Positions 1,409-24,978 of a stretch of 64,000 nucleotides of DNA are shown here, one piece after another; position 1 is the stretch's first letter, and each line of letters starts with the position of its first letter. Where the stretch lies: NCBI RefSeq assembly GCF_000787835.1, contig NZ_BBPP01000022.1:62001-126000 (forward strand), in the 5' to 3' direction. The position numbers and the translations under genes are program-made. The notes below the pieces were generated by a model that did not search any database, was not told the origin of the DNA, and saw only the letters and a program-made list of their open reading frames with translations. The stretch is from Streptacidiphilus melanogenes. GTDB taxonomy: Bacteria; Actinomycetota; Actinomycetes; Streptomycetales; Streptomycetaceae.

Positions 1409-2434
1409 CTAGAAGTCGTCGTCGAAGGAGACGGAGCCCTCGACAGCGATCTGGTAGGCGGAGACCCGGCGCTCGAAGAAGTTCGTCAGCTCCTGGACGT
1501 TCTGCAGCTCCATGAAGGCGAACGGGTTCTCCGAGCCGTAGCGGATCGGCAGGCCGAGGCGGGCGAGGCGCTGGTCGGCGACGCACTCGAGGTACTGGCG
1601 CATGGACTCGGTGTTCATGCCCGGCAGGCCCTCGCCGCACAGGTCGCGGGCGAACTGGAGCTCGGCCTCGACGGCCTCCTCCAGCATCGCGGTGACCCGC
1701 TGGCCCATCTCCTCGTCCCACAGCTCGGGCTCCTCGGCCCGCACGGTGTCGACGACGCGGAAGGCGAAGTCCATGTGCATGGACTCGTCGCGGAAGACCC
1801 AGTTGGTGCCGGTCGCCAGGCCGTGCAGCAGGCCGCGCGAGCGGAACCAGTAGACGTACGCGAAGGCGCCGTAGAAGAACAGGCCCTCGATGCACGCCGC
1901 GAAGCAGATCAGGTTGAGCAGGAAGCGGCGACGGTCGTCCTTGGTCTCCAGCTGGTCCAGCTTCTCGACGCTGTCCATCCAGCGGAAGCAGAACTGCGCC
2001 TTCTCGCGGATGGAGGGGATGTTCTCCACCGCCGCGAAGGCGGCCGTGCGGTCCTCCGGGTCGGGCAGGTAGGTGTCCAGCAGGGTCAGGTAGAACTGGA
2101 CGTGCACGGCCTCCTCGAAGAGCTGGCGCGACAGGTACAGGCGCGCCTCCGGGGAGTTGATGTGCTTGTAGAGCGTCAGCACCAGGTTGTTGGAGACGAT
2201 CGAGTCGCCGGTCGCGAAGAACGCGACCAGGCGGCCGATCATGTGGCGCTCGCCCTCGCTGAGCTTGGCCAGGTCCGCGACGTCGGAGTGGAGGTCGACC
2301 TCCTCCACGGTCCAGGTGTTCTTGATGGCGTTGCGGTAGTGCTCGTAGAAGTCCGGGTACCGCATCGGGCGGAGCGTCAGCTCGAAGCCCGGGTCCAGGA
2401 TGTTCTTCTTCTTGGCGTCGGGGGTGGTGGTCAT
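1409..2434 (-). CDS. nrdB: Ribonucleotide reductase class I, radical-bearing small subunit (R2)
   Basis: R2 subunit that houses the diiron-tyrosyl radical cofactor and passes the radical to NrdA for reduction of ribonucleoside diphosphates. At 341 residues it has the usual length. The first iron-ligand set is visible as Asp77, then EAVHVQFY with Glu108 and His111, with Tyr115 in the radical position (E-x2-H-x3-Y as in E. coli R2). The second set is EGLFFY and DESMH. The C-terminal tail SVSFDDDF is acidic and would dock on R1. The start ATG shares one base with the nrdA stop (TAATG), so translation is coupled. The nrdS regulator that I recall following nrdB in S. coelicolor is absent; def lies there instead. 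Confidence 0.96.
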   Translation of the reverse strand: MTTTPDAKKKNILDPGFELTLRPMRYPDFYEHYRNAIKNTWTVEEVDLHSDVADLAKLSEGERHMIGRLVAFFATGDSIVSNNLVLTLYKHINSPEARLYLSRQLFEEAVHVQFYLTLLDTYLPDPEDRTAAFAAVENIPSIREKAQFCFRWMDSVEKLDQLETKDDRRRFLLNLICFAACIEGLFFYGAFAYVYWFRSRGLLHGLATGTNWVFRDESMHMDFAFRVVDTVRAEEPELWDEEMGQRVTAMLEEAVEAELQFARDLCGEGLPGMNTESMRQYLECVADQRLARLGLPIRYGSENPFAFMELQNVQELTNFFERRVSAYQIAVEGSVSFDDDF

Positions 2435-4800: not shown

Positions 4801-4949
4801 GTACGCGCTCGCTCCTCGTTGGCGGCCGGTGTCTGAGGGGTGCTCAGTCGGACCGCGTGAGAAGGCAGGCGGGAACAGGGCAGCGCGAAGCCAACCCGTC
4901 GGCCCACCCACGAGGCCCGGCGTTGCAGCGCCCGCGGCCGGGCAGGCCG

Positions 4950-5085
4950 GGGCGTGCTGACGGCAGGTACTCGGACTTGCGGGCAGGCCAGTTGTCGTGC
5001 AGGCCGTGGCAGCCGCTCACCGTTGCGGGGCAGTCCCGGACTCGCACCGGGTTCCCCTGCGTCGACAGCGAGCATGAGCATACAT
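4950..5085 (-). promoter_or_regulatory. Adenosylcobalamin riboswitch in the nrdAB leader
   Basis: Read on the minus strand, the leader carries the hallmark core of cobalamin aptamers. There is a GGGAACCCGGTGCGAGTCC block, followed by ACTGCCCCGCAACGGTGA (the conserved CCCGCNACNGT element), and after a variable stem AGTCCGAGTACCTGCCGTC (the B12-box side). About 150 nt separate the aptamer from the nrdA start, room for an expression platform. A B12 riboswitch repressing nrdABS is established in S. coelicolor, where the B12-dependent NrdJ enzyme is the alternative. The same logic is inferred here. Confidence 0.93.
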
Positions 5086-5122
5086 CTAGGGGCGAGCGCG
5101 TCGTGCAGCACCAGATGTTGTG
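5076..5122 (-). promoter_or_regulatory. Probable pair of NrdR boxes at the nrdAB promoter
   Basis: Two 16-nt elements, at 5107-5122 (ACACAACATCTGGTGC on the minus strand) and about 5076-5091 (CCCTAGATGTATGCTC), resemble the ACACTATATATTGTGT-type NrdR box. Their centres are 31 bp apart, the three-turn spacing typical of NrdR. They lie just upstream of the aptamer and would overlap the promoter. The first box is the better match and the second is diverged. Confidence 0.55.
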
Positions 5123-9042: not shown

Positions 9043-9311
9043 GCCTGCTCACCCCCGCGGGCGGGGCGCTGGGCCTTGCGCTGCTTCTCCTCGCGCGTGA
9101 ACAGGACGTAGGCGAGTCCGGTCATCAGCGCCGACAGGACCACCCACAGGAGTTGGTACCAGTAGAAGAACGGGATCCCGGCGAGTGCGGGCTTGTCGGT
9201 CGCGTAGGAGTCGACCCAGAGCAGGGCCACGAAGGGTGCGGCCAGGAGCACTGCGCAGACCACGCGCACGGGCGTGACCAGCGGCAGGCGCGGTGCGGAG
9301 GGTTCGGACAT
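9039..9311 (-). CDS. DUF3311 small membrane protein, symporter partner
   Basis: A 90-residue protein with two predicted transmembrane helices (about residues 15-32 and 47-70) joined by a loop with IPFFYWYQLLW, the recognisable DUF3311 core. The C-terminus is basic and cytoplasmic. It is the first gene of a two-gene operon with the symporter and probably acts as an accessory subunit, as similar small proteins do in other SSS transport pairs (inference). A 10-bp palindrome lies 35 nt upstream of its start. Confidence 0.85.
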   Translation of the reverse strand: MSEPSAPRLPLVTPVRVVCAVLLAAPFVALLWVDSYATDKPALAGIPFFYWYQLLWVVLSALMTGLAYVLFTREEKQRKAQRPARGGEQA

Positions 9312-9345
9312 GGACGGCGGCTCCCCCTTGCGTCGTTGACGGTTT

Positions 9346-9355
9346 GTTGATCAAC
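9346..9355. promoter_or_regulatory. Palindrome upstream of the DUF3311-symporter operon
   Basis: GTTGATCAAC is a perfect 10-bp palindrome in an A+T-richer patch 35 nt before the operon start, with a related GTTGAC just downstream. It is a candidate operator; the binding protein is unknown. Confidence 0.35.
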
Positions 9356-9449
9356 GGAACAAGGGGAATCTAACCCCTTGCCGCGGCCACGTCACGAGTT
9401 CGGGTTGTGGTGGGGTCGTGCAGATGCGCCGGAGGAGAGCGCCGCGCAA

Positions 9450-9482
9450 CAAAACGAGCGCCCCGCGGTCGTGCGGGGCGCT
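9450..9482 (-). terminator. Rho-independent terminator of dasR
   Basis: A 10-bp GC stem (AGCGCCCCGC and its complement, 9457-9466 and 9473-9482) with a 6-nt loop is followed on the minus strand by CGTTTTGTTG. It is one of the few U-tailed terminators in the window. Confidence 0.8.
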
Positions 9483-9519
9483 GTCGCGTGCGCGTGCGCC
9501 TGTGGCGCGCCGTCCGGGC

Positions 9520-10290
9520 TTACGCCTCCGGGCGGCGCAGGCGGGTGGTGAACTTGTAGCGGTCGCCGCGGTAGACCGAGCGGACCCACTCGACGGGCTC
9601 GCCGCCCGCGTCGAACGAGTGACGCGAGAGCAGCAGCATCGGCAGGCCGACGTCGGTGCCGAGCACGCCCGCCTCGCGCGGGGTGGCCAGCGAGGTCTCG
9701 ATGGTCTCCTCGGCCTCGACGACGTGCACGCCGTAGACCTCGGTCAGCGCGGTGTAGAGCGAGTTGTACTTGACCAGGTTCCGGCGCAGCGCCGGGAAGC
9801 GCTTGGCGCTCAGGTGCGCGGTCTCGATGGCCATCGGGTCGCCGTTGGCCAGGCGCAGGCGCTCGACCCGCAGCACGCGGCCGCCGGGGCGGATGTCGAG
9901 CAGCTCGGCGAGCCGGTCGTCGGCGGTGATGTAGCCGACCTCCAGCAGCCGCGAGGTCGGCTCCAGGCCCTGGGCGCGCATGTCCTCGGTGTAGGACGTG
10001 AGCTGGAGCGCCTGGGAGACCTTGGGCTTGGCGACGAAGGTGCCCTTGCCCTGGATCCGCTCCAGCCGTCCCTCGACCACCAGCTCCTGCAGTGCCTGCC
10101 GCACCGTGGTGCGCGAGGTCTCGAACTCGAGCGCCAGCGTGCGCTCCGGCGGGACGGGCGTGCCCGGCGCCTGCGTCTGGGTGATCTGCAGCAGGTGGCG
10201 CTTGAGGCGGTAGTACTTCGGGACGCGGGCCGTGCCGCCGTTCTCCTGCGTCTGGGGCGCTTCCACGCCCACGCCCCCATCCGTCGTCAT
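9520..10290 (-). CDS. dasR: GntR/HutC-family regulator, DasR
   Basis: A 256-residue regulator with an N-terminal winged helix (residues about 25-95: [22 protein letters not shown] is the DNA-reading helix-turn-helix) and a UTRA ligand domain after residue 105. Sequence and length agree with DasR, the global N-acetylglucosamine regulator, which releases dre operators when it binds glucosamine-6-phosphate. It directly follows the GH3 gene of the chitobiose cluster, and five dre-like sites lie within 8 kb, which supports the call. In S. coelicolor dasR is divergent from dasABC; here it is at the distal end and co-directional. No clear dre is seen in its own 141-nt upstream gap, only a half-site. 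Confidence 0.88.
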
Positions 10291-10431
10291 CGCGGGTTCT
10301 CGTTCCTTTCGGTGGGGTCCTCGCCCGGTCGCCGGTGCCGTCGTCGGCAGGCTGCTGCGGGACCAATGGTGGCACGTCGGCGCAACCCGGCAAGCATTGC
10401 CGAGACTACTGGCGGCACGGGCGCCGACCGC

Positions 10432-12009
10432 TCAGGCGATCCGGACGACCTGCGCACCCGGGCCCGCCAGTGCCTCCGCCGCGGCGACGCCGCAGACGCG
10501 GGCGCCACCGAAGGTGGTCAAGGTGGTGACGCCACGATCGGCCAGCACCGAGTCGACCCCGTAGGCGGTGCCGATCTCGACGACGACGGCGTCCGGCCGG
10601 GCGGCCGTCAGCTCCAGCGTCGCCCGCTGCATCCACGGGTGGCGGTGCAGGTCCCGCACAACGATCACCAGCGGACGCCCCACGGCCGCGCCCAGCAGCG
10701 GCTCGGTGTCGACCCGTCCGTCCGCGGCGTCGACCGCGGTGCGGATCAGGCCGGCCGTCTCCAGCCGGGCGACCGGGGCGCCGACGCGGGCGGCGGTGGT
10801 GCCCGGCAGGAACTCGCTCAGCGGCCCGGCGACACCCCACGGCGTCTCGGAGCCGACGGCGAAGTTGGCGGCCGGGGAGAACTCCACCACGTGCGGCACA
10901 CCGTGCAGCGGCGCGAGCGTCCCGTGGACGCGCAGGGCGCGCCGCGCCGCCGTCAGCCCGATGCCGGGGGCGGCGGCCGCCTTCGTCTCGCGGCGCAGCT
11001 CCGCCGACCAGCGGGCGACGGCCCGGTTGCGTTCGGCGGCCTCGTGCAGCCGCTCCTCCGACAGTCGGCCCTCGCGGACCGCCCAGAGCAGCGCGTCGCG
11101 CAGGTAGCGGAAGGTGGCCTCGTCCTCCAGTCCGCCGCCGACGCAGATGGTGTCGGCGCCGACCGCGATGGCCTTGACCGTGCCCTCGGCGATGCCGTGC
11201 GTGCCGGAGATGGCGCCCATCTCGATGCCGTCGGTGACGATCAGTCCCTGGTAGCCCAGCTCGTTGCGGAGCAGGTCGTGCAGGATCGCCCGGGACATGG
11301 TGGCCGGCAGGTCGGGGTCGTAGGCGGGGAAGAGGATGTGCGCGGTCATGATCCCCTTGACGCCCGCGGCAACCGCGGCCTTGAACGGGACCAGGTGCTC
11401 GTCGAAGCCGTCGGCGGTCAGGTCGATGCGCGGCAGGCCCAGGTGGGAGTCGGCCGCGGTGTCGCCGTGTCCGGGGAAGTGCTTGGCGCAGGCGGCCACC
11501 CCGGCCGACTGGACGCCGCGCACGTAGGCGGCGGTGTGCCGGGCGGCCAGCTCGCCGTCGCCGCCGAAGGAGCGGACGCCGATGACGGGGTTGTCCGGGT
11601 TGGTGTTGACGTCCGCGTCCGGCGCGTAGTTGAGGTTGATGCCGGCGGCGGCGAGGTCGAAGCCGATGGACCGGGCGACCTCCTCGGTGAGCGCCACGTC
11701 GTCAACGGCGCCGAGCGCCAGGTTGCCGGGGTAGGAGGAGCCGCTGACAGCCTCCAGACGGGTGACGTCGCCGCCCTCCTCGTCGGTCGCGATCAGCACG
11801 TCGGGGTTGAGTGCGTAGAGCGAGGAGGTGAGCGCGGCGACCTGGTCCGGGTCGGCGATGTTGCGTCCGAAGAGCGCCACGCCGCCCAGCTCCCCCGAGT
11901 CGAGGTGGCGGCGCACCCAGTCGGGAGCCGTCAGACCGGAGAAGCCTGGCTGGAGCACCGCACCGGCGTCTGCGAGCAGTTGGACGGTGTCCGGGCCGGG
12001 GTTGGTCAT
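10432..12009 (-). CDS. dasD: Glycoside hydrolase family 3 beta-N-acetylhexosaminidase
   Basis: A 525-residue GH3 enzyme expected to split N,N'-diacetylchitobiose or GlcNAc-terminated oligomers after uptake. The NagZ-type signature is complete: IATDEEGG, then KHFPGHGDT followed by DSH (the Asp-His acid/base dyad that marks N-acetylglucosaminidases), and LIVTDGIEM carrying the nucleophilic Asp. There is no signal peptide, so it acts in the cytoplasm. The residues after about 350 form the GH3 C-terminal region. The ATG at 12009 has AAGGAACC upstream. It lies 118 nt after dasC and is followed by dasR, and probably belongs to the same transcript. Confidence 0.9.
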   Translation of the reverse strand: MTNPGPDTVQLLADAGAVLQPGFSGLTAPDWVRRHLDSGELGGVALFGRNIADPDQVAALTSSLYALNPDVLIATDEEGGDVTRLEAVSGSSYPGNLALGAVDDVALTEEVARSIGFDLAAAGINLNYAPDADVNTNPDNPVIGVRSFGGDGELAARHTAAYVRGVQSAGVAACAKHFPGHGDTAADSHLGLPRIDLTADGFDEHLVPFKAAVAAGVKGIMTAHILFPAYDPDLPATMSRAILHDLLRNELGYQGLIVTDGIEMGAISGTHGIAEGTVKAIAVGADTICVGGGLEDEATFRYLRDALLWAVREGRLSEERLHEAAERNRAVARWSAELRRETKAAAAPGIGLTAARRALRVHGTLAPLHGVPHVVEFSPAANFAVGSETPWGVAGPLSEFLPGTTAARVGAPVARLETAGLIRTAVDAADGRVDTEPLLGAAVGRPLVIVVRDLHRHPWMQRATLELTAARPDAVVVEIGTAYGVDSVLADRGVTTLTTFGGARVCGVAAAEALAGPGAQVVRIA

Positions 12010-12127
12010 GGTTCCTTCCCTCACGGGGTCTTGAAGCGTCCCCTGGCGGGGTCTCGAAGCGTCGGAGCGCGGTCGGGGGTGCGCTGAGCGGGCTGAGCGG
12101 GACATGCCCTGCGCACCCCCGGGCGCG

Positions 12128-13033
12128 TCAGCCCTTGACCGCGCCGGCGGTCAGGCCGGAGGCGACGCGACGCTGGAAGATGACGAACAGGATGATCACC
12201 GGCAGGGAGACCATCAGTGCGCCGGCCATCTGGGAGCCGTAGTCGGCACCGTGGGTCGGGGTCGAGGAGAAGCCGGTCAGCCACACCATCGCGGTCTGCT
12301 GGTCGTTGCTGGAGAGCAGGATGTTGGCGATGACGAACTCGTTCCACGCCTGGATCCAGCAGAAGACGCCGGTGGTGATCAGGCCGGGGACGGTCAGCGG
12401 CAGGATGACGCGCATGAAGGCGCCCCAGCGGGTGCAGCCGTCGACCAGGGCAGCCTCGTCGAGCTCTCTCGGGATGTTGACGATGAAGGACCGCAGCGTC
12501 CACACCACGTAGGGGATGGTGAAGACCAGGTAGGCCAGGATGACGCCGAAGCCCTGGTCGTACAGGCCGATGTTCTTCAGGATGAAGAACATCGGGATGA
12601 CCAGCGAGAGCAGCGGGACCATCTGCACCACGAGCATGGCCGCGATGAAGAAGTTGCGGCCCGTGAACCGGAACCGGGCGACCGCGACGGCGCCGAGGAA
12701 GCCCACGGCCAGGCCCATGACGACCGCGCCGACGGTGATGATCGCGACGTTGCGCATGTCGGGCAGGAAGTTCGGGTCGGTGAAGACCGTCTTGAAGCTG
12801 GCGGTGCTGAAGCCGGTCGGCCAGAACGTCGGGTCGACGCTCAGCAGGTCCTTGCCGGTCTTGATCGGCGTGATGATCATCCAGTAGATCGGGAAGAACA
12901 TCACCACCGCGAAGGCGACGGCGACGGCGTTCCAGATCGGCGTCGCCCACCGGCGGCGGCCGACCGCGTCGTCCTCGCGGCTGCGCCTGAGGCCATCGGG
13001 CCGGACGCGGGCGCCCTTGATGCTGAGTGCCAT
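12128..13033 (-). CDS. dasC: Carbohydrate ABC transporter permease (MalG type)
   Basis: A 301-residue inner-membrane permease with six hydrophobic segments from residue 32. The EAA loop that contacts the ATPase reads ELDEAALVDGCTRWGAFMRVILP. The start overlaps the dasB stop (TGATG). No ATPase gene is in the cluster, as in other Streptomyces sugar importers that share the multitask ATPase MsiK encoded elsewhere (established for Das in S. coelicolor, inferred here). It forms the translocation pore with DasB. Confidence 0.9.
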   Translation of the reverse strand: MALSIKGARVRPDGLRRSREDDAVGRRRWATPIWNAVAVAFAVVMFFPIYWMIITPIKTGKDLLSVDPTFWPTGFSTASFKTVFTDPNFLPDMRNVAIITVGAVVMGLAVGFLGAVAVARFRFTGRNFFIAAMLVVQMVPLLSLVIPMFFILKNIGLYDQGFGVILAYLVFTIPYVVWTLRSFIVNIPRELDEAALVDGCTRWGAFMRVILPLTVPGLITTGVFCWIQAWNEFVIANILLSSNDQQTAMVWLTGFSSTPTHGADYGSQMAGALMVSLPVIILFVIFQRRVASGLTAGAVKG

Positions 13034-14013
13034 CAGTCCTGCTCTCCGATCTTGATGACCTGGCGGATGTAGAAGATGAGGACCGCCAGCATGAGCAGGA
13101 TCATCAGGATCGAGATGACGGCGCTGGTGCTGTAGTGCGAACTGCCCAGACCCTGCTGGTAGAGGTAGATGCCGAGAACGCGGTAGCCCTCCTCGGGGGC
13201 GTTCTGGCGCAGCGCCCAGATCTGGCCGAAGACCTGGAAGTCCCAGATGAAGCTGAGGGCGGTGCACAGCACCAGGAAGGGCTTGATCACCGGCAGCACC
13301 ACGTTCCGGAAGGTCTGCCAGCCGTTCGCGCCGTCCAGCTTCGACGCCTCGACGAGTTCCTTGGGCACCTGCGTCATCGCCGCGTTGATGCCGATCACCA
13401 GGAACGGCAGCGCGCCCCAGAGCACCGCCAGCGCGACCACGACGTACAGGCCCTGGTTCGAGTCGGCGAACCAGTCGTGCGTCCGCCAGCCCTTGTTCCC
13501 GGTCACCTGGTACAGGAGGTAGTCGACGACGCCGCCGGTGTTGGCGAAGAGCCAGCGGAAGACGGTGCCGGTGACGATCTGCGGGATGGCCCAGACGAAC
13601 ATCAGCGCGGTGACGACGGTGACCTTGGCCCAGTTGGAGACCCGCTGCAGCAGCAGGCCGAAGAGGAGGGCGAGCACGATGGAGGCGGTGACGACCTCCA
13701 GCGTGAACAGCACGGTCCGCTCGGTCGACTGCCAGAACTCGGCGCTGGAGAGCACCTTGGTGAAGCCGTCGAAGCCGATGAACTTCACCAGCGACGGCGC
13801 CGACAGGTGGAGGTAGTCGTTCACGTTCTGGAAGGCCAGAACGAACAGGTCCACCAGGGGGTAGGCCAGCACGCCCACCAGGACCACCACGGCAGGGGCG
13901 ATCAGCACATAGGGGACGTAGTTCCCACGGATGCGCACGCCCCTGCGTGCCGCCTTCGGGGCCTTCGGCTCGTCGGCGGCGTCCGGCACGCGGTCGCTTT
14001 CGATCACACTCAT
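13033..14013 (-). CDS. dasB: Carbohydrate ABC transporter permease (MalF type)
   Basis: A 326-residue permease with a 30-residue charged N-terminal tail and six membrane segments beginning YVPYVLIAPAVVVLVGVLAY. The EAA-type loop is ELVEASKLDGANGWQTFRNVVLP. The ATG at 14013 is preceded by AGGAAGG. It partners with DasC, and the stop and start codons of the two genes overlap. A strong hairpin separates it from dasA upstream, which probably lowers its expression relative to the binding protein. Confidence 0.9.
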   Translation of the reverse strand: MSVIESDRVPDAADEPKAPKAARRGVRIRGNYVPYVLIAPAVVVLVGVLAYPLVDLFVLAFQNVNDYLHLSAPSLVKFIGFDGFTKVLSSAEFWQSTERTVLFTLEVVTASIVLALLFGLLLQRVSNWAKVTVVTALMFVWAIPQIVTGTVFRWLFANTGGVVDYLLYQVTGNKGWRTHDWFADSNQGLYVVVALAVLWGALPFLVIGINAAMTQVPKELVEASKLDGANGWQTFRNVVLPVIKPFLVLCTALSFIWDFQVFGQIWALRQNAPEEGYRVLGIYLYQQGLGSSHYSTSAVISILMILLMLAVLIFYIRQVIKIGEQD

Positions 14014-14052
14014 CTTCAGGTCCTTCCTCACCCTTCCTCACCCGCCCGGGCG

Positions 14053-14089
14053 GAGCGGGCAACCGGCGAGGTGCTCCGGTTGCCCGCTC
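14053..14089 (-). terminator. Intercistronic hairpin between dasA and dasB
   Basis: A perfect 14-bp stem (GAGCGGGCAACCGG and its complement) with a 9-nt loop lies 26 nt after dasA. Hairpins at this place usually stabilise or terminate the binding-protein mRNA, giving an excess of binding protein over permeases. Confidence 0.7.
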
Positions 14090-14114
14090 GGTGCGAGATC
14101 CGAGATCCGGTCGC

Positions 14115-15440
14115 TCAGCCCGCGTTCAGGTCGGCGAGGATGGTCGTCTGCGCCGTGGTGAGCTCGCTGTTCGCGTCCTTGCCGGTGGCGATGTCGCTCA
14201 GCGCGTTCTGCAGCGCGACCTCGTCGGAGGCCTGGCTCCAGTAGGGGCTGTTGGGGATGAACCAGGTCTTGCCCATGGCCGCCTCACCGGTGGCCTTGTT
14301 GGCGGGGGACGCCGCCTCGTAGGCCGGGACGAGGGTCTTGTTGTTCGGGATCGCGAACTTGGCCAGCGCGGTCTGCTGGGCGGTGTTGGTGAAGATGCGC
14401 AGGAACTCGGCTCCCAGGCCCGGGTTGGCGGCGTGGCTCGGGACGGCCAGGTCGGAACCGCCGAGGAAGGCCGGGGTCGGGGCGTCGGCGGTGGCTCCGG
14501 GGAGCGGGACCTCGCCGAGGACGTTGGCCAGGGCCGGGTTCCCGCCCTGTGCGGCCGGGGCGGCGACCGAGCCGGCCTCCCAGCCGTTGCCCACGATGGC
14601 GGCGATGTTGCCCTTGGCCATCAGCGCGTCCTGGTTGTTCTCGTCGACGGTCTGACCGCCCACCGAGTAGTTCTTCTGCAGGTCGGCCCAGGTCTGGATG
14701 CCCTTGACGAAGTTCGGGTCGGTCAGCGTGCCGGACCACTTGCCGCTGCTGCTCTTGGCTATGACACCGGCGGTGCCGAAGTCCGCCGCACCGAAGGAGA
14801 CTGCGGTGTACCAGTCCTTGCCCGGCAGGTAGAGCGCGGAGAAGTTCGGGTTGGAGGCGTTCTTGGCCTTGACCTTGGCGAGGTCCGCCTGGAGCTCGTC
14901 CAGGGTGGTGGGCGGCGTGGTGACGCCGGCCGCGGCGAAGAGGTCCTTGCGGTAGATCAGGACGCGGGAGCCGGCGTAGTACGGGATGGCGTAGGTCTTG
15001 GTGCCGTCGCCGTTCTGGCCGGAGGCGGCCAGGGAGTCCAGCCAGGAAGAGGAGTTGTCGAACTTGTCCTTGACCGAGGTCAGGTCGACGAAGGAGCCGG
15101 CCGCGATGTACTTGGCGGTCTGGGTGTTGCCCAGCTCCAGCGCGTCGGGGGCGTTGCCGGAGAGCAGGGCCGTGTCCAGCTTGGTGCTGTAGTTCGGCCA
15201 GTTCTGCCACTCGATGTTGACCTTGGCACCGGTCTCGTCCTGGAACTGCTTGACCGCCGCGTTGACCACACCCGGCCAGCCCTTCTGGGCGTCCTGCATG
15301 ATCCAGACGGTGATCGTCTTGCCCTTGCCGTCCGTGGAGAGCGTGCCCTGGGAGGACGAGCCGGTCGAGGACGAAGAGGAGCAGGCAGCCACGGACAGAA
15401 CGGTCGCCAGTGCGGCGGCTGCAGCGATCTTGCGCTTCAA
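14115..15440 (-). CDS. dasA: Sugar-binding lipoprotein of the chitobiose ABC transporter
   Basis: A 441-residue extracellular solute-binding protein (cluster B, MalE-like). The lipoprotein signal is KRKIAAAAALATVLSVAAC with the lipobox Cys at residue 20, followed by a serine-rich linker. The mature protein begins GKTITVWIMQDAQKG and contains ELGNTQTAKYIAAG and the IPYYAGSRVLIYRKDLF segment found in amino-sugar binding proteins. The start is the TTG at 15440, chosen because AGGAGG lies 6 nt upstream and the signal peptide begins there. It is the first gene of dasABCDR. Two dre-like sites lie 125-165 nt upstream. The binding specificity (chitobiose rather than GlcNAc) is inferred from the cluster. 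Confidence 0.9.
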   Translation of the reverse strand: MKRKIAAAAALATVLSVAACSSSSSTGSSSQGTLSTDGKGKTITVWIMQDAQKGWPGVVNAAVKQFQDETGAKVNIEWQNWPNYSTKLDTALLSGNAPDALELGNTQTAKYIAAGSFVDLTSVKDKFDNSSSWLDSLAASGQNGDGTKTYAIPYYAGSRVLIYRKDLFAAAGVTTPPTTLDELQADLAKVKAKNASNPNFSALYLPGKDWYTAVSFGAADFGTAGVIAKSSSGKWSGTLTDPNFVKGIQTWADLQKNYSVGGQTVDENNQDALMAKGNIAAIVGNGWEAGSVAAPAAQGGNPALANVLGEVPLPGATADAPTPAFLGGSDLAVPSHAANPGLGAEFLRIFTNTAQQTALAKFAIPNNKTLVPAYEAASPANKATGEAAMGKTWFIPNSPYWSQASDEVALQNALSDIATGKDANSELTTAQTTILADLNAG

Positions 15441-17502: not shown

Positions 17503-18963
17503 ATGCCTTCCCTGAACGAGCTGGTGCGCCACCACACCTCGCTGGAACCCGCCGACGTGGAGTGGATCCACCTGCTGGTCTCCGAATGGCAGCTGCTCTC
17601 GGACCTGTCCTTCGCCGACCTCGTGCTCTGGGTTCCGACCCGGGACGGCACCCGCTACGTCTCCCTGGCCCAGATGCGGCCCAACACCGGCCCGACCTCC
17701 TACCAGGACGACATGGTCGGCCACCTCGTGCCGCGGGGCCGCAGACCGCTGCTGGACATGGCGCTCGACGAGGGCAGGATCGTCCGTGAGGGTGACCCCG
17801 AGTGGCGCGAGGACGTACCCGTTCGGGTGGAGTCGATCCCGGTCCGCCGGGAGGGGCGCATCCTCGGCGTGATCGCCCGCAACACCAACCTGCTGACCGT
17901 GCGCACGCCCAGCCGGCTGGAGCTCACCTATCTGCAGAGCGCCTCCGACCTGGCCCAGATGATCGCCAACGGCACCTTCCCCTTCCTGGGGGAGCAGGTG
18001 GACATGGACGCCTCGCCCCGCGCCGGCGACGGACTGATCCGGCTCGACGCCGACGGCGTCGTCACCTACGCCAGCCCCAACGCGCTCTCCGCCTACCACC
18101 GGCTCGGCCTCAACTCCGACCTGGTCGGACTGAACCTCGGCAAGACCACCGCCGACCTGATCCCGCCCACCCGCGGCCCGGTCGACGAGGCGCTGGTCAA
18201 ACTGGCCAGCGGCTGGGCCCCGCGGCAGACCGAGATCGAGCACCCCGAGGCCGTGGTCCAGCTGCGCACCATCCCGCTCAAGCCCAAGGGCGAGACCATC
18301 GGCTCACTGGTGCTGTTGCGCGACGTCACCGAGCTGCGCCGCCGCGAGCGCGAGCTGATGACCAAGGACGCGACGATCCGGGAGATCCACCACCGGGTCA
18401 AGAACAACCTGCAGACCGTCGCCGCGCTGCTGCGCCTCCAGTCGCGCCGGATGGACTCCGACCCCGCCCGGGCCGCGCTCGACGAGGCGGTGCGCCGCGT
18501 CGGCTCGATCGCGATCGTCCACGAGACGCTGTCGATGGCTCTGGACGAGCGGGTCGCCTTCGACGAGATCGCCGACCGGGTGCTGGCCATGGTGATGGAG
18601 CTCTCGCCCGACGGCCGGGTGACCGCGCGGCGCGACGGAAGCTTCGGGATCCTCTCCGCGGAGGTGGCCACGCCGCTGTCGATGATCCTCACGGAGATCC
18701 TGCAGAACGCGCTCGAGCACGCCTACGGCCCCAAGGCGGGCGGTGTGGTGGAGGTCGCGGCCCGCCGTGAGGACGGTGTGTTGCACATCACCGTCACCGA
18801 CGACGGCTCCGGACTGCCCGAGGGCTTCGATCCGCAGACCGCCGGAAACCTGGGTCTCCAGATCGTCCGTACGCTTGCGGCCGGGGAGCTGGGCGGGAGC
18901 TTCGACATGAGGCCCGCGCCGCACGGCGGGACCGAGGTAGTCCTCGAAATCCCGTTTGGCTGA
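17503..18963 (+). CDS. pdtaS: PdtaS-like sensor histidine kinase
   Basis: A 486-residue soluble kinase without membrane segments. Order: GAF-like domain (about 1-155), PAS domain (about 165-275), HisKA_2-type phosphoacceptor with EIHHRVKNNLQTVAALLRLQ (His296/297), and a HATPase domain with the N-box EILQNALEHAY and glycine boxes DDGSGLPEGF and GNLGLQI. This is the layout of mycobacterial PdtaS (Rv3220c), which phosphorylates the RNA-binding antiterminator PdtaR. In Mycobacterium it lies beside whiB1, and I recall the Streptomyces orthologue beside wblE. Here a 4-kb synthetase gene separates them. No PdtaR gene is in the window. Confidence 0.92.
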   Translation: MPSLNELVRHHTSLEPADVEWIHLLVSEWQLLSDLSFADLVLWVPTRDGTRYVSLAQMRPNTGPTSYQDDMVGHLVPRGRRPLLDMALDEGRIVREGDPEWREDVPVRVESIPVRREGRILGVIARNTNLLTVRTPSRLELTYLQSASDLAQMIANGTFPFLGEQVDMDASPRAGDGLIRLDADGVVTYASPNALSAYHRLGLNSDLVGLNLGKTTADLIPPTRGPVDEALVKLASGWAPRQTEIEHPEAVVQLRTIPLKPKGETIGSLVLLRDVTELRRRERELMTKDATIREIHHRVKNNLQTVAALLRLQSRRMDSDPARAALDEAVRRVGSIAIVHETLSMALDERVAFDEIADRVLAMVMELSPDGRVTARRDGSFGILSAEVATPLSMILTEILQNALEHAYGPKAGGVVEVAARREDGVLHITVTDDGSGLPEGFDPQTAGNLGLQIVRTLAAGELGGSFDMRPAPHGGTEVVLEIPFG

Positions 18964-19107
18964 CTGTAGGTCTGTTTTTACCAGTTACACACCCGAGCAG
19001 CGACAACCTCACGGGATGCCGGCTCGTCTACAGTCCCGGACGCCACAAGCGCAGCTCATGGCGCCGAGCAGGACCACCCCTACCCGACGCCCGGCGAGAA
19101 AACCCAA

Positions 19108-22100
19108 GTGGATCAAGAGAACTTCATCGTGCCCGCCAACCCCACCGTCTCGGGCGGGGGAGTCATCACGGCTCCGGCGTGGCAGCAGCGGGACGCGGCC
19201 CGGCCGGCCGCACCGGACTGGTCCGTAGGAGCGGTCTGGCCGACGGCCGACCCGGCTCCGGCCCGGACGCTGCTGGACATCCTGGACGAGACCGCCTGGC
19301 GTCACCCCGACGCCCCGGCCCTGGACACCGGCACCGCCGTCCTCTCCTACCGGCAACTGCTCCACGCCGTCGGCAACCTGGCGGCGGAGCTGGCCGGCTA
19401 CGGCATCGGACCCGGCGACCGCGTCGGTGTCCGCGTGCCCAGCGGCACACCCGAGCTCTACCTCGGCATCCTCGGCGTCCTGCGCGCCGGCGCCGCCTAC
19501 GTCCCCGTCGACGTGGACGACCCGGACGAGCGCGCGGAGATGATCTGGACCGACGCCGGGGTCTGCGCCATCGTCGGCGAAGGTCTGTCCGTCGTCGCCG
19601 GCCCCAGCCCCACCGGCGGGGAGCCAGGCGCAGCGCGCGTCACCGACGACGCCTGGATCATCTTCACCTCCGGCACCACCGGGCGCCCCAAGGGCGTCGC
19701 CGTCACCCACCGCAGCGCCGCCGCCTTCGTCGACGCGGAGGCACGGCTGTTCCTGCGGCAGGCGCCGCTCGGTCCCGGCGACCGTGTGCTGGCCGGTCTC
19801 TCGGTCGCCTTCGACGCCTCCTGCGAGGAGATGTGGCTGGCCTGGCGCCACGGTGCCTGCCTGGTGCCCGCGCCGCGCTCGCTGGTCAAGGCCGGCACCG
19901 ACCTCGGCCCCTGGCTGGTCGAGCGCGGTATCACCGTCGTCTCCACCGTGCCCACCCTGGTCGCGCTCTGGCCCGAGCAGGCGCTGGACCGGGTCCGGCT
20001 GCTGATCGTCGGCGGGGAGGCGTGCCCGCCGGAACTGGTCGAGCGCCTCGCCGTCTCCGGCCGCGAGTTCTGGAACACCTACGGCCCCACCGAGGCCACC
20101 GTCGTCGCCTGCGCCTCGCTGATGCGCGCGGGCGAACCGGTGCGCATCGGCGCGCCGCTGGACGGGTGGGAGCTGGCCGTGGTCGGCTCCGACAACAGGC
20201 CCGTCGCCTGGGGCGAGATCGGCGAGCTGGTCATCGGCGGTGTCGGTACCGCCCGCTACCTCGACCCGGCCAAGGACACCGAGAAGTTCGGCGCCGAGCC
20301 CTGGCACGGCCGTCGCGAACGCGTCTACCGCAGCGGCGACCTGGTCCGCGCCGACCCCGAGGGGCTGGTCTTCGTCGGCCGCGCCGACGAGCAGGTCAAG
20401 CTCGGCGGCCGCCGGATCGAGCTCGGCGAGGTCGACGCGGCGCTGCAGGCGCTGCCGGGCGTCCGCGCGGCGGCCGCCGCCGTCAAGGAGACCCCGGCGG
20501 GCGGCCAGGTGCTGGTCGGCTACCTCGTCCCGGACGGCGCAGGCGAGCCCGAACTGGCCGCGCTGCGAACCCAGTTGCTCGACCGGCTGCCGCAGGCCCT
20601 GGTGCCGGTGCTGGCCGTCGTGTCGGAGCTGCCGACGCGCACCTCCGGCAAGGTCGACCGCAAGGCGCTGCCCTGGCCGCTGCCGGGTGTCGGCACGGAC
20701 GCCGGCGCGGACGCAGGCGGCCCGCTGCACGGCACCGCCGCCTGGCTGGGTGAGCAGTGGCAGGCCGTGCTCGGCGTGCCGGTGGGACCGGAGAGCGACT
20801 TCTTCGCGCTCGGCGGCACCAGCCTCGCTGCGGCCAAGCTCGTGTCGCTGCTGCGGCAGCGCTTCCCCGGCGCGTCCGTGGCCGACCTCTACCAGCAGCC
20901 CCGGCTGCAGTCGCTCGCCGACCACCTCGACGGCGGCGTGATCGAGACGGGGGAGGCGCGCGAGGTCCGGCCGGTGCCGCGCCACGTCGGCCTGTACCAG
21001 GCGCTGGTGCTCGCCGTCCTCTACACCCTCACCGGCCTGCGCTGGGTGCTGGCGCTCGCTGCCGTCGACAACGTCATAGGGCCGCTGCCGTGGGCTCCGC
21101 ACACCTCCTGGACGCTGATCGCTGGCGGCTGGGTGCTGCTCTCCAGCGCCTTCGGCCGCTCCCTCGTCGGGGCCCTCGGCGCCCGGATGCTGACAGCGGG
21201 TCTGAAGCCCGGCAGCTACCGCCGCGGCGGCTGGAACCATCTTCGGCTGTGGACCGCGGAGCGGCTCGTCGGCATGTTCAACGTGGCCGCCGTCATCGGC
21301 ACGCCCATGGCCCGCCGCTACGCGCGCCTGCTCGGCTGCCGCGTCGGCCGTGACGTCGAGCTGCACAGCATGCCGCCGGTCACCGGCATGGCCGTCTACG
21401 GCGACGGCTGCGCCGTGGAGACCGAGGTCGACGCGGCCGGCTGGTGGCTCGACGGCGACGTGCTCCACCTGGGCACGATCCGGATCGGCAAGGGCGCCCG
21501 GGTCGGCACCCGGACCATGCTGATGCCCGGCGCCGAGATCGGCTACGACGCCGAGGTGCTGCCCGGCAGTTGCGTGATCGGCCGCGTTCCGGCCCGCGCC
21601 CGCGTCCACGGCAGCCCGGCCGTCCCGGACGAGCGGCCGGTGCCGGAGCAGGAGCAGTGGCCCGAGCCCGCGCACCGCCGCTCGCGGCTGTGGAACCTGG
21701 CCTTCGCCGTCGCGCTGCCCGGCTTCCAGCTGCTGCCGCTGCTCTCGGCGCTGCCGGCCGTCGTGGTGCTCTGGCTGCTGATCGGCAAGGACCCCTCCTA
21801 CCTCGGCGTCTTCGACCGGATCCTGGTGGCCTCCGTCCCGCTGGCCCTGGTGACCACGGTCCTGTACGCGCTGGCCGTCGTGGTGACGGTCCGGCTGTTC
21901 TCCCTCCCGATCAAGCCGGGCCTGCACCCCGCGCACGGCAAGGTCGGCTTCTGCGTCTGGGCCGTCCACAACCTGATGGGCTCGGCCCGGGTCACCCTCT
22001 TCCCCCTCTACGCCAGCCTGATGACGCCGCTGTGGCTGCGGATGCTCGGCGCGAAGCTCGGCCGCCGGGTCGAGGCGTCGACCGTCATCGGCCTGCCCGG

Positions 22101-23070
22101 CCTGATGCGGGTCGACGACCACGCCTTCCTGGCCGACGACACGATGGTCGGCTCCTTCGCCGTCGGCGGCGGCTGGCTGCGGCTCGGCGTCTCGTCGGTC
22201 GGCAAGCGCTCCTTCGTCGGCAACTCGGGCATCGTCGGTCCCGGCCGGGCGCTGCCGGACGACTCGCTGGTCGGCGTGCTCTCCGACGCGCCGCCCTCGT
22301 CCGAGCCGGGCAGCTCGTGGCTGGGCCGTCCCGGCATGCGCGTGCAGCGCGTCGTCGAGGGCGGCGACGACACCGCCCGCACCTACGACCCGCCGCGCCG
22401 ACTCGTCCGGGCCCGTGCGCTGGTGGAGCTGTGCCGCATCCTGCCGGTGCTGATCACGGTGCTGCTCGGCGACCTGGCCGCGACCGCCCTGCAAGCGCTC
22501 TTCGACTGGGACGGGCTGGCCACCTCCGCCGTGCTGGCGGGCGTGCTGCTGCTGGTCCTCGGGGTGACGGCGTGTCTGATCACCACCCTCGCCAAGTGGT
22601 TGCTGGTGGGCCGCTTCCGTGAGGGGCAGAAGCCGCTGTGGAGCTCCTTCGTGTGGCGCAACGAGCTCTTCGACACCTTTGTCGAGGAGCTGGCGATGCC
22701 GTGGCTGGGCGGAACGCTCGTCGGCACGCCCTTCTTCACCCTGTGGCTGCGCAGCCTGGGCACCCGGATCGGCCGCGGCGTGTGGTGCGAGTCGCACTGG
22801 TTCCCTGAGACGGACCTGATCGGCATCGGTGACGGAGCCACCGTCAACCGCGGTGTGGTGGTGCAGACCCACCTCTTCCACGACCGGCTGATGCGCATGG
22901 ACGCCATCGAGGTGGAGGCGGGGGCGACCATCGGCCCGCACTCGATCGTGCTGCTCGGCTCGACGCTGGGGGAGGGGGCCGTGGTCGGCCCGTCCTCGCT
23001 GGTGATGCGCGGCGAGTCGGTGCCGGCGGGCAGCCGCTGGCTCGGCAACCCGGTGCGCCGCTGGGCGTAG
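19108..23070 (+). CDS. Pls/PosA-family NRPS, candidate poly-lysine-type synthetase
   Basis: A single-module membrane-bound nonribosomal peptide synthetase of 1320 residues. Adenylation domain (about 50-520): TSGTTGRPKGVAVTH, FDASCEEMW, NTYGPTEATV, YRSGDLV, SGKVDRK. Carrier domain: DFFALGGTSL with attachment Ser572. Then three repeats of membrane helices (about 627-690, 861-931, 1105-1165), each followed by a left-handed beta-helix segment (about 792-838, 992-1060, 1235-1320). No condensation or thioesterase domain is seen. This matches epsilon-poly-L-lysine synthetase Pls, which polymerises a basic amino acid through the tandem C-terminal domains. The pocket code from D236, A237, E240, S279, I300, G302, T324, V332, V333 and K515 is DAESIGTVVK, close to the lysine code I remember (DAESIGSVCK). 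The start is a GTG with weak GGCGAG upstream. The product is inferred, not shown. Confidence 0.9.
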   Translation: MDQENFIVPANPTVSGGGVITAPAWQQRDAARPAAPDWSVGAVWPTADPAPARTLLDILDETAWRHPDAPALDTGTAVLSYRQLLHAVGNLAAELAGYGIGPGDRVGVRVPSGTPELYLGILGVLRAGAAYVPVDVDDPDERAEMIWTDAGVCAIVGEGLSVVAGPSPTGGEPGAARVTDDAWIIFTSGTTGRPKGVAVTHRSAAAFVDAEARLFLRQAPLGPGDRVLAGLSVAFDASCEEMWLAWRHGACLVPAPRSLVKAGTDLGPWLVERGITVVSTVPTLVALWPEQALDRVRLLIVGGEACPPELVERLAVSGREFWNTYGPTEATVVACASLMRAGEPVRIGAPLDGWELAVVGSDNRPVAWGEIGELVIGGVGTARYLDPAKDTEKFGAEPWHGRRERVYRSGDLVRADPEGLVFVGRADEQVKLGGRRIELGEVDAALQALPGVRAAAAAVKETPAGGQVLVGYLVPDGAGEPELAALRTQLLDRLPQALVPVLAVVSELPTRTSGKVDRKALPWPLPGVGTDAGADAGGPLHGTAAWLGEQWQAVLGVPVGPESDFFALGGTSLAAAKLVSLLRQRFPGASVADLYQQPRLQSLADHLDGGVIETGEAREVRPVPRHVGLYQALVLAVLYTLTGLRWVLALAAVDNVIGPLPWAPHTSWTLIAGGWVLLSSAFGRSLVGALGARMLTAGLKPGSYRRGGWNHLRLWTAERLVGMFNVAAVIGTPMARRYARLLGCRVGRDVELHSMPPVTGMAVYGDGCAVETEVDAAGWWLDGDVLHLGTIRIGKGARVGTRTMLMPGAEIGYDAEVLPGSCVIGRVPARARVHGSPAVPDERPVPEQEQWPEPAHRRSRLWNLAFAVALPGFQLLPLLSALPAVVVLWLLIGKDPSYLGVFDRILVASVPLALVTTVLYALAVVVTVRLFSLPIKPGLHPAHGKVGFCVWAVHNLMGSARVTLFPLYASLMTPLWLRMLGAKLGRRVEASTVIGLPGLMRVDDHAFLADDTMVGSFAVGGGWLRLGVSSVGKRSFVGNSGIVGPGRALPDDSLVGVLSDAPPSSEPGSSWLGRPGMRVQRVVEGGDDTARTYDPPRRLVRARALVELCRILPVLITVLLGDLAATALQALFDWDGLATSAVLAGVLLLVLGVTACLITTLAKWLLVGRFREGQKPLWSSFVWRNELFDTFVEELAMPWLGGTLVGTPFFTLWLRSLGTRIGRGVWCESHWFPETDLIGIGDGATVNRGVVVQTHLFHDRLMRMDAIEVEAGATIGPHSIVLLGSTLGEGAVVGPSSLVMRGESVPAGSRWLGNPVRRWA

Positions 23071-23077
23071 CGGACGA

Positions 23078-23114
23078 GGAAGCCCCCCGACCGCCGCGCG
23101 GTCGGGGGGCTTCC
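23078..23114 (+). terminator. Terminator of the synthetase gene
   Basis: A perfect 17-bp stem (GGAAGCCCCCCGACCGC and its complement) with a 3-nt loop starts 7 nt after the stop codon. Confidence 0.85.
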
Positions 23115-23163
23115 TTGATGCTCGGAGGCGACGCTCCCCTGACAAAGCTCCGGGGACGAAGCG

Positions 23164-23435: not shown

Positions 23436-23687
23436 TCAGGCGGTGCGGGCACGGTTGCGGGCGGCACGGCGCTTCATCGCGCGACGCTCGTCCTCGCTCA
23501 TGCCACCCCAGACACCGGCGTCCTGGCCCGTCTCCAGCGCCCACTGGAGGCAGCTCTCCATGACCGGGCAGCGACGGCACACGGCCTTCGCCTCCTCGAT
23601 CTGGAGCAGCGCGGGCCCGGTGTTGCCGATCGGGAAGAAAAGCTCGGGGTCCTCTTCCCGGCAGACAGCGCGGTGGCGCCAGTCCAT
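23436..23687 (-). CDS. wblE: WhiB-family iron-sulfur regulator, WblE (WhiB1 orthologue)
   Basis: An 83-residue WhiB-like protein. The four cluster-ligand cysteines are Cys9, Cys37, Cys40 and Cys46 (C-x27-C-x2-C-x5-C), followed by the GVWGG turn and a basic tail (ERRAMKRRAARNRAR) that contacts DNA. The sequence MDWRHRAVCREEDPELFFP is typical of the WhiB1/WblE branch, an essential NO-sensitive partner of sigma factor region 4 in mycobacteria. GAGGAG precedes the ATG. A CRP-like site lies about 60-75 nt upstream of the start. The 334-nt gap to the next gene holds this promoter region and no other gene that I can see. Confidence 0.95.
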   Translation of the reverse strand: MDWRHRAVCREEDPELFFPIGNTGPALLQIEEAKAVCRRCPVMESCLQWALETGQDAGVWGGMSEDERRAMKRRAARNRARTA

Positions 23688-23746
23688 CTTGTCCAACTCC
23701 TCTAAACGGCGGGGATGTCCCACCAGCATCAATGGCAGCTTGTGAA

Positions 23747-23762
23747 TGTGAACGCTTTCACG
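23747..23762. promoter_or_regulatory. CRP-type operator upstream of wblE
   Basis: TGTGA, 6 nt, TCACG matches the CRP/FNR consensus TGTGA-N6-TCACA at 9 of 10 core bases. In M. tuberculosis the whiB1 promoter is controlled by the cAMP receptor protein Rv3676, so the position is meaningful. Confidence 0.6.
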
Positions 23763-24021
23763 AACCCGATGGCAGGCACAGGGCCGACGGGTCGGTCGGC
23801 ACACGGATGCTCGCGGCGTTGCGGGTGGATTCGGGCGCCTCAGGCGGTCTCCGTTACGGACCGTCCCGATCGCCATGTAAAGGTTCGCAAACCTCGACCC
23901 GGGATACAACCCCCTTCGGGTAGGAAATTTTGAATCGTCGGTGTCGCTTGGGTCACACCCTGTACTTCGATGGAGTGAAGCGGCGCGTGCGTTCGAGAAC
24001 AAGGCCAAATGGCCCTCGCGT

Positions 24022-24978
24022 TCACACAATCACACGCAGTGCCCGAGATACGCCTGTGAAGCTGATGGTGTTCCGCTCCCCAAGGTGGTCCCCATCGACC
24101 TGGAACGGCAGCGGTTCCTGCGAATGCAAGGTGAATTCCGGGAGATCGTGGTAAGCGACCACGTGTTTGCCGTGCGGTCCGGCACCCGTCGAGTCCAGCA
24201 GTTGCGGGATCGTGCGCAGAGTCTGAACGAGTGACATCCGGGTCATGCCGAAGAGGTCGAGGCTCGTGTCGAACCCGGCCTCCGGCGAGGCGTAGACGGG
24301 CCGGTTGCCGAGATACGTCCACGGCGAGGTGTTGGAGACTATCGACACCGCGAGGCCCGGGATCGGTTCCATTCCGTCGCTACTGAACGTGATGGGCCCG
24401 TGGCGACGGTGTCTGCCCTCCTCGAAGAACTGCCGCCAGGCCTGACCCACGTACAGGGCGTGCGTCGACCGGCGCCCACCGCGCCGCGCCTGCTCCACGC
24501 GGCCGACGACGCCGGCGTCGAAGCCGAACCCGGCGGTGAAGGTGAACCAGCGGTCGGGGAGTCCCTCGCCACCCGAGCGGCCGAGGCTGATGGCCCGCTG
24601 CCGCGGGGCGCCGGGCCGGGACAGCGCGTCGAGCAGCACGCCGGTCGCCTCGACGGGGTCGTTCGGCAGCCCGAGTGCGCGGGCGAAGACGTTGGTGCTG
24701 CCGCCGGGAACGATCGCGAGTGCGGGCAGCTGTTCGTCGGGTCCGTCGTGGAGCAGCCCGTTGACGACCTCGTTCACCGTCCCGTCGCCGCCGAGGGCGA
24801 CCACGACGTCGTGCGTCCGCTCGCGTGCCGCCTCCCGCGCGAGATCCCGCGCGTGGCCCCGGTAGCCGGTGGCGACCACGTCCAACTTGAGGTCGTGCGA
24901 AAGGGCGTGCGTGAGGACGTCTCGGGTTCGTCCACTGGTGGTGGTCGCTTTGGGATTGACGACCAGGAGCGCACGCAT
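24022..24978 (-). CDS. Diacylglycerol kinase family lipid kinase
   Basis: A 318-residue enzyme of the DAGK catalytic superfamily (DgkB/YegS type). The nucleotide-binding signature is VVVALGGDGTVNEVVNG near residue 65, with VPGGSTNVFARALGLP as the second glycine loop. The N-terminus MRALLVVNPKATTTSG is standard. It phosphorylates diacylglycerol or a related membrane lipid at the inner face of the membrane. The start lies 7 nt after a TACGCT -10 element, so the mRNA is probably leaderless. Confidence 0.9.
   Translation of the reverse strand: MRALLVVNPKATTTSGRTRDVLTHALSHDLKLDVVATGYRGHARDLAREAARERTHDVVVALGGDGTVNEVVNGLLHDGPDEQLPALAIVPGGSTNVFARALGLPNDPVEATGVLLDALSRPGAPRQRAISLGRSGGEGLPDRWFTFTAGFGFDAGVVGRVEQARRGGRRSTHALYVGQAWRQFFEEGRHRRHGPITFSSDGMEPIPGLAVSIVSNTSPWTYLGNRPVYASPEAGFDTSLDLFGMTRMSLVQTLRTIPQLLDSTGAGPHGKHVVAYHDLPEFTLHSQEPLPFQVDGDHLGERNTISFTGVSRALRVIV

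What the first reader, a model, noticed from the sequence alone, without database searches (positions are those of the whole stretch)
19108..23070. Complete Pls/PosA-type synthetase with a lysine-like pocket: candidate cationic homopolymer pathway
The protein has the exact order A domain, carrier domain, then three membrane/left-handed-helix repeats, without condensation or thioesterase domains, and at 1320 residues is the size of epsilon-poly-L-lysine synthetase. The selectivity code read off the sequence is DAESIGTVVK. The acidic Glu in the third position (E240) and the overall match to the lysine code I recall (DAESIGSVCK) point to Lys, or possibly Orn or another diamino acid. The three C-terminal modules are the part known to make the isopeptide bonds. 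The organism may thus secrete a poly-lysine-type antimicrobial not previously assigned to it.
Basis: partly seen in the sequence, partly recalled or inferred. Interest (0 to 1): 0.85.

Follow-up and report, generated by a model that had tools for sequence, protein, structure and literature searches.

The report
Extra poly-lysine synthetase without its peptidase
This gene encodes a complete epsilon-poly-L-lysine synthetase, the known enzyme type that makes a cationic antimicrobial used as a food preservative; it is one of three such genes in this acid-loving actinomycete, and unlike the classical one it has no polymer-cutting peptidase gene beside it.

Summary
Window 19108-23070 (+) encodes a 1320-residue A-PCP-(TM/left-handed beta-helix)x3 protein of the Pls/PosA family (TIGR02353, 648.8 bits, cut-off 423.1). 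Poly-diaminopropionate/diaminobutyrate-type relatives have Phe at position 2 and are only 30-37% identical. An AlphaFold2 model of the C-terminal half (pLDDT 89.9) shows three TM/beta-helix repeats. So it is a new member of a known kind, predicted to make ePL.

The surroundings add more. The genome holds three lysine-type synthetases. Only one has the M1 (PldII-type) peptidase gene of the canonical operon; the window copy has none. In the host genus, which includes Streptacidiphilus carbonis, this copy sits between pdtaS and wblE in 13 of 14 genomes, under purifying selection; nine other-genus genomes have no pls there. Nearly all multi-copy genomes of the family have exactly one peptidase-coupled copy. 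Peptidase-free copies therefore look like satellite ePL synthetases. Whether they make a different ePL is untested.

The parts
19108..23070 (+). pls-type gene: epsilon-poly-L-lysine synthetase, 1320 aa (A-PCP-C1/C2/C3)
   Evidence: ORF and translation; TIGR02353 648.8 bits; 7wew E 7e-206; dN/dS 0.13-0.25 among orthologues
19267..20652 (+). adenylation domain (about residues 54-515), specificity code DAESIGTVVK
   Evidence: Pfam AMP-binding and AMP-binding_C; code identical to 7WEW, 90 of 113 residues identical over the pocket-lining region 228-340
20743..20928 (+). peptidyl carrier domain (residues 546-607), LGGTS motif, attachment Ser572
   Evidence: Pfam PP-binding 7e-12; GGTS at residues 569-572
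20995..23055 (+). NRPS_term_dom: three TM-helix-pair / left-handed beta-helix repeats (about residues 612-850, 852-1091, 1092-1320)
   Evidence: TIGR02353 630-1316; AlphaFold2 pLDDT 89.9; internal repeats by hhalign; acetyltransferase/gamma-carbonic-anhydrase beta-helix matches
22864..22887 (+). QTHLFHDR (residues 1253-1260) in repeat 3, candidate catalytic motif
   Evidence: invariant in 194 of 194 lysine-type sequences, QTHLFEDR in 7 of 8 Phe-code relatives; the catalytic role is inferred
18964..19107 (+). pdtaS-pls intergenic region with a conserved ECF-type promoter-like element (AACC-N16-CGTCTA) and an upstream TTTACC block
   Evidence: alignment of 12 genus members; strict pattern AAC[CT]N16CGT[CG] in 8 of 12 syntenic copies against about 0.015 expected per sequence; function inferred
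23075..23117 (+). 20-bp hairpin straight after the pls stop codon, probable terminator
   Evidence: minimum free energy -45.3 kcal/mol, z -6.7; no T-run, so the consensus scan did not call it
17503..18963 (+). upstream neighbour: PdtaS-type sensor histidine kinase (core gene; marks the insertion site)
   Evidence: Pfam GAF_PdtaS 3e-57 and HisKA_2; synteny
23436..24029 (-). downstream neighbour: WhiB-family regulator (WblE-like); the other side of the insertion site; start codon not settled
   Evidence: Pfam Whib 1e-27; synteny
24022..24978 (-). diacylglycerol-kinase-type protein, conserved next to the WhiB gene
   Evidence: Pfam DAGK_cat 3.5e-29; synteny

Best explanation
The gene encodes a membrane-bound epsilon-poly-L-lysine synthetase. 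The A domain activates L-lysine with ATP and loads it on the carrier domain Ser572; the C-terminal domain, one pseudo-threefold unit of three TM/left-handed-beta-helix repeats, joins successive lysines through their epsilon-amino groups and hands the short polycation to the outside. It is a peptidase-uncoupled satellite copy: an ancient extra Pls placed between pdtaS and wblE in the ancestor of the host genus, kept under selection, transcribed on its own (promoter-like element before it, hairpin after it). The canonical peptidase-coupled Pls, and in this genome a third uncoupled copy, lie elsewhere. Shown: architecture, code identity, gene order, conservation, selection. Inferred: lysine as substrate, ePL as product, secretion, separate regulation. 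Not known: whether the three copies make polymers that differ in length, timing or location.
For: TIGR02353 over its cut-off; 7WEW match, 69% identity, same code; Ala at code position 2 and Glu at position 3 as in Lys-activating members (PMC10522769); tree groups it with lysine-type Pls, the Phe-code enzymes forming a separate clade; C. variabile Pls, reported at 51% identity to Streptomyces Pls, made ePL when expressed (PMC8117764); AlphaFold2 model and three internal repeats; three copies in the genome; M1 peptidase only beside C102; genus-wide synteny and an empty pdtaS-wblE junction in 9 of 9 other-genus genomes; dN/dS 0.13-0.25; conserved upstream element; 3' hairpin.
Against: No biochemistry on any copy. 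The specificity code alone does not prove the substrate. ePL synthetase genes can be silent: C. variabile made no detectable ePL natively (PMC8117764). The canonical operon partner is missing at this locus. The ECF-type promoter is a pattern match in related sequences.
Confidence: 0.87

Rival explanations
1. A cationic homopolymer synthetase for a different diamino acid (ornithine, diaminobutyrate, diaminopropionate or beta-lysine).
For: The family includes such enzymes, and the tools found Phe-code relatives in the same bacterial family.
Against: The code is identical to 7WEW at all ten positions. Phe-code relatives are 30-37% identical to the window protein and form a separate clade. PosA has Met at position 2 and its M218A change raised lysine use about tenfold (PMC10522769).
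Confidence: 0.06
2. A decaying duplicate with no remaining function, since a canonical pls-peptidase pair is present elsewhere in the genome.
For: The genome has two other copies; third copies in some genus members look broken or partial (L106).
Against: Open reading frame and invariant motifs intact; dN/dS 0.13-0.25; syntenic copy found in 13 of 14 genus members.
Confidence: 0.04
3. A lysine polymerase whose product is not a secreted antimicrobial but a short or surface-retained polycation (for example for the envelope of an acidophile), which would explain why no PldII-type peptidase is needed beside it. This is a refinement of the best explanation, not an exclusive alternative.
For: Absence of the adjacent peptidase in the whole clade; distinct upstream element; chain length is reported to be set by the synthetase itself (PMC9205021).
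Against: Nothing here measures product length or location; a peptidase encoded elsewhere in the genome could act on all ePL.
Confidence: 0.2

Closest known systems
Pls, epsilon-poly-L-lysine synthetase of Streptomyces albulus (A domain PDB 7WEW)
   Same: A-PCP-(TM/beta-helix)x3 order, size, identical ten-residue code, A domain 69% identical
   Different: S. albulus pls is coupled to the adjacent peptidase gene pldII (PMC9223678, PMC8117764); the window gene has no peptidase beside it, sits between pdtaS and wblE, and coexists with two other lysine-type copies
Pls of Corynebacterium variabile (ePL shown by expression in S. coelicolor, PMC8117764)
   Same: family architecture, lysine-type enzyme
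   Different: peptidase-coupled; reported at 51% identity to Streptomyces Pls, against 69% over the A domain between the window protein and 7WEW
PosA, delta-poly-L-ornithine synthetase of Acinetobacter baumannii (PMC10522769)
   Same: family, domain order, Asp and Glu at code positions 1 and 3
   Different: code DMEHNGTVSK with Met at position 2; its A domain is reported as 36% identical to the ePL synthetase
Poly-diaminopropionate / poly-diaminobutyrate synthetases
   Same: TIGR02353 terminal domain; QTHLF(H/E)DR motif shared by the Phe-code relatives found here
   Different: Phe at code position 2 (DFECLS..; PMC10522769), 30-37% identity to the window protein, no M1 peptidase alongside

Membership tests
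Pls/PosA cationic homo-poly(amino acid) synthetases (TIGR02353) | C-terminal NRPS_term_dom over the curated cut-off | tested here: met
   648.8 bits against 423.1, residues 630-1316
Pls/PosA cationic homo-poly(amino acid) synthetases (TIGR02353) | A domain and carrier domain upstream, no condensation or thioesterase domain | tested here: met
   Pfam reports only AMP-binding, AMP-binding_C, PP-binding and Hexapep
Pls/PosA cationic homo-poly(amino acid) synthetases (TIGR02353) | three tandem repeats with six TM helices and beta-helix modules | tested here: met
   AlphaFold2 pLDDT 89.9 and pTM 0.90 with three helix-pair/beta-helix repeats; repeats homologous; hydropathy shows five strong TM segments, while TM2 (about residues 668-696) is helical in the model but below threshold
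epsilon-poly-L-lysine synthetase (Pls) | lysine specificity code (Ala2, Glu3; DAESIGTVVK) | tested here: met
   identical to 7WEW and to nearly all of about 195 lysine-type sequences
epsilon-poly-L-lysine synthetase (Pls) | groups with lysine-type Pls and not with the poly-Dap/Dab types | tested here: met
   trees of 83 and 196 sequences; the Phe-code rows form one clade with 100 support
epsilon-poly-L-lysine synthetase (Pls) | activates L-lysine and makes epsilon-linked polymer | not testable with these tools
   needs enzyme assay and mass spectrometry
canonical pls-pldII operon (usual gene context, not a defining feature of the enzyme) | M1-type ePL peptidase gene directly downstream | tested here: not met
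   none in the window; a hairpin and then the WhiB-family gene on the other strand follow; the genome's coupled copy is at C102 (L010)

The most novel reading that the evidence does not exclude
Peptidase-free Pls copies are a functionally distinct class: extra ePL synthetases under their own, possibly envelope-stress, control that make a short or surface-retained lysine polymer, fixed genus-wide in acidophilic actinomycetes at the pdtaS-wblE locus, while the peptidase-coupled copy makes the secreted antimicrobial and supplies the protective peptidase.
Probability: 0.2. Interest if true: 0.6.

Novelty: new member of a known kind. Interest (0 to 1): 0.4.

Why it matters
ePL is a commercial food preservative, and its natural role and the control of its chain length remain open. 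A genus of acidophiles in which every sampled genome carries a peptidase-coupled synthetase and nearly every one a second, syntenic, peptidase-free synthetase gives a natural comparison for asking what extra copies do and whether synthetase or peptidase sets polymer length. It also names a group of likely ePL producers for which no report was found in the searchable literature, and acidic pH is reported to favour ePL production (PMC9205021).

Tried and rejected
Ornithine, Dab or Dap specificity: rejected on the code and the tree. A chance or antisense ORF: the 1422-aa ORF on the opposite strand is a GC-rich shadow frame; the + frame has GC3 0.95 and all the domains. Operon with an M1 peptidase: looked for and absent; the 518-aa gene beside the C97 copy, first taken for a peptidase, is a SpoIIE-type phosphatase. 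Sigma-70 promoter and U-tract terminator scans: none called. The Hamano 2014 paper on Pls linkers and chain length is not held, so chain length could not be predicted from linkers. A family-wide protein search failed on the server and was replaced by a TIGR02353 search. A first statement that all multi-copy genomes have exactly one coupled copy had to be softened: one (G037) has two, and G019 and G097 have only an uncoupled copy.

Full report
What is there. Window 19108-23070 (+) is one open frame of 1320 residues with a GTG start. Profile searches give AMP-binding (60-383), AMP-binding_C (441-515), PP-binding (546-607, GGTS with Ser572) and then the terminal domain TIGR02353, 'Pls/PosA family non-ribosomal peptide synthetase', at 648.8 bits against a cut-off of 423.1, residues 630-1316. 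No condensation or thioesterase domain is reported. The nearest solved structure by sequence is 7wew, the epsilon-poly-L-lysine (ePL) synthetase A domain, E 7e-206; identity is 69%.

Specificity. Read on an alignment with 7WEW, the ten code residues are D236 A237 E240 S279 I300 G302 T324 V332 V333 K515 = DAESIGTVVK in both. Over residues 228-340, which line the pocket, 90 of 113 residues are identical to 7WEW. In PosA (ornithine) position 2 is Met and changing it to Ala raised lysine use about tenfold; Lys enzymes have Ala and Dap/Dab enzymes Phe there (PMC10522769). The Phe-code relatives that the genome search brought in are 30-37% identical to the window protein; the eight in the tree form a separate clade with full support. 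Lysine is therefore the well-supported prediction; it has not been shown biochemically.

C-terminal half. An AlphaFold2 model built on 53 related sequences has pLDDT 89.9 and pTM 0.90 and shows three repeats of a helix pair followed by a left-handed beta-helix. The three thirds are homologous to each other (hhalign probability 98.9-99.7%). Sequence and fold searches find hexapeptide acetyltransferases and gamma-carbonic anhydrases (VIA Z at most 7.9, so a common fold rather than a close relative). Repeat 3 holds QTHLFHDR (1253-1260), invariant in 194 of 194 lysine-type sequences and QTHLFEDR in seven of eight Phe-code relatives. I read it as the likeliest catalytic motif; that is an inference.

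Three copies in the genome. The assembly has the window gene (contig C86), a 70%-identical copy (C97) and a 57%-identical copy (C102), all with the same code. Only the C102 copy is followed directly by an M1 peptidase gene, the arrangement of S. albulus pls-pldII (PMC9223678, PMC8117764). The next-best M1 protein of the genome is 37% identical to that peptidase and lies elsewhere. The window copy is followed by a 20-bp hairpin (-45.3 kcal/mol, z -6.7) and then by a WhiB-family gene on the other strand.

Host and conservation. One genome of the host's genus (G003) contains the very contig deposited as Streptacidiphilus carbonis NBRC 100919 (L017 = L101), so the host belongs to the genus that contains this acidophile. 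All 14 sampled genus members have the family. In 13 of 14 the window copy, in one genome broken into several frames, lies between pdtaS and the WhiB/DAGK genes; in the fourteenth it is on a 4.7-kb contig and its place cannot be seen. All 14 also carry a copy with the M1 peptidase alongside (in G013 broken into several frames). In nine other-genus genomes of the family pdtaS is followed by the WhiB and DAGK genes with no pls between. The gene was therefore most likely placed there once, in the ancestor of the genus, and kept: dN/dS to five orthologues is 0.13-0.25.

Own control region. Between pdtaS and pls (144 bp) the 12 alignable genus members share a TTTACC-type block and, further down, an element with ECF-promoter spacing, AACC-N16-CGTC in the near relatives and looser in the others. 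The strict pattern occurs in 8 of 12 syntenic copies (about 0.015 expected per sequence), against 2 of 26 other uncoupled and 5 of 75 coupled copies. The sequences are related, so this is a lead and not a proof. In S. albulus pls is reported to be controlled by sigma HrdD in response to pH (PMC8994273), so control may differ.

A wider pattern. Of 121 Streptomycetaceae genomes sampled, 84 have a TIGR02353 hit. I fetched the full-length lysine-type genes with flanks. They fall into a large lineage almost always followed by an M1 peptidase and a second lineage, containing S. albulus-like Pls and the window gene, in which most copies lack it. Of 77 genomes with full-length lysine-type genes, 31 have more than one; 30 of these have exactly one coupled copy and one has two. 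36 of 39 uncoupled copies share their genome with a coupled one; one of the three exceptions (G012) has its coupled copy in a frame that the length filter left out (L123), leaving G019 and G097. A label shuffle gives at most 66 genomes with a coupled copy against 74 observed, but the genomes are related, so the p-value should not be taken literally. The simplest reading is that one peptidase per genome suffices and extra synthetases travel without it.

Judgement. The unexpected part is the satellite status of this copy, its genus-wide syntenic conservation and its separate control region. No paper linking Streptacidiphilus with poly-lysine was found, and a genome-mining paper on the genus does not mention it in its main text; subscription journals are largely outside this library. 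Production, polymer length and the role of the three copies are open.

Noticed in passing
L009 (G000:C97:117001-137000), 9773-13690 (-): Third lysine-type Pls of the same genome, also without a peptidase, beside a PAS/SpoIIE-type phosphatase gene; it occurs in only some genus members, sometimes in broken or partial form (L106).
   Followed up: partly
L010 (G000:C102:58001-78000), 9085-14476 (+): Canonical Pls with an M1 peptidase gene directly downstream and a large 1365-aa gene upstream, conserved at 89% or more in six related genomes; the function of the 1365-aa protein was not examined.
   Followed up: partly
G087, G111, G079 and others: TIGR02353 matches in frames of only about 820-1010 residues, up to four per genome; these look like synthetases without their own A domain (A domain perhaps supplied in trans).
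   Followed up: no
window 4945-5091 (-): Cobalamin riboswitch (Rfam RF00174, 43 bits) in front of an ORF (2434-4911 -) that reads as a ribonucleotide reductase large chain; the second ORF (1409-3727 -) overlaps it and its downstream part reads as the small chain, probably from a later start. Probably B12-controlled class I nrdAB.
   Followed up: partly
G019 (L204/L220) and G097 (L211/L226): Two genomes hold only a peptidase-free lysine-type Pls; G097 has no close M1 peptidase at all, an exception to the one-peptidase-per-genome pattern.
   Followed up: partly
L193 and L194 (G098): Two Pls hits of equal score without a peptidase in one chromosome, at 97 kb and 7597 kb of a 7624-kb contig, a recent duplication perhaps in the chromosome arms.
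   Followed up: no
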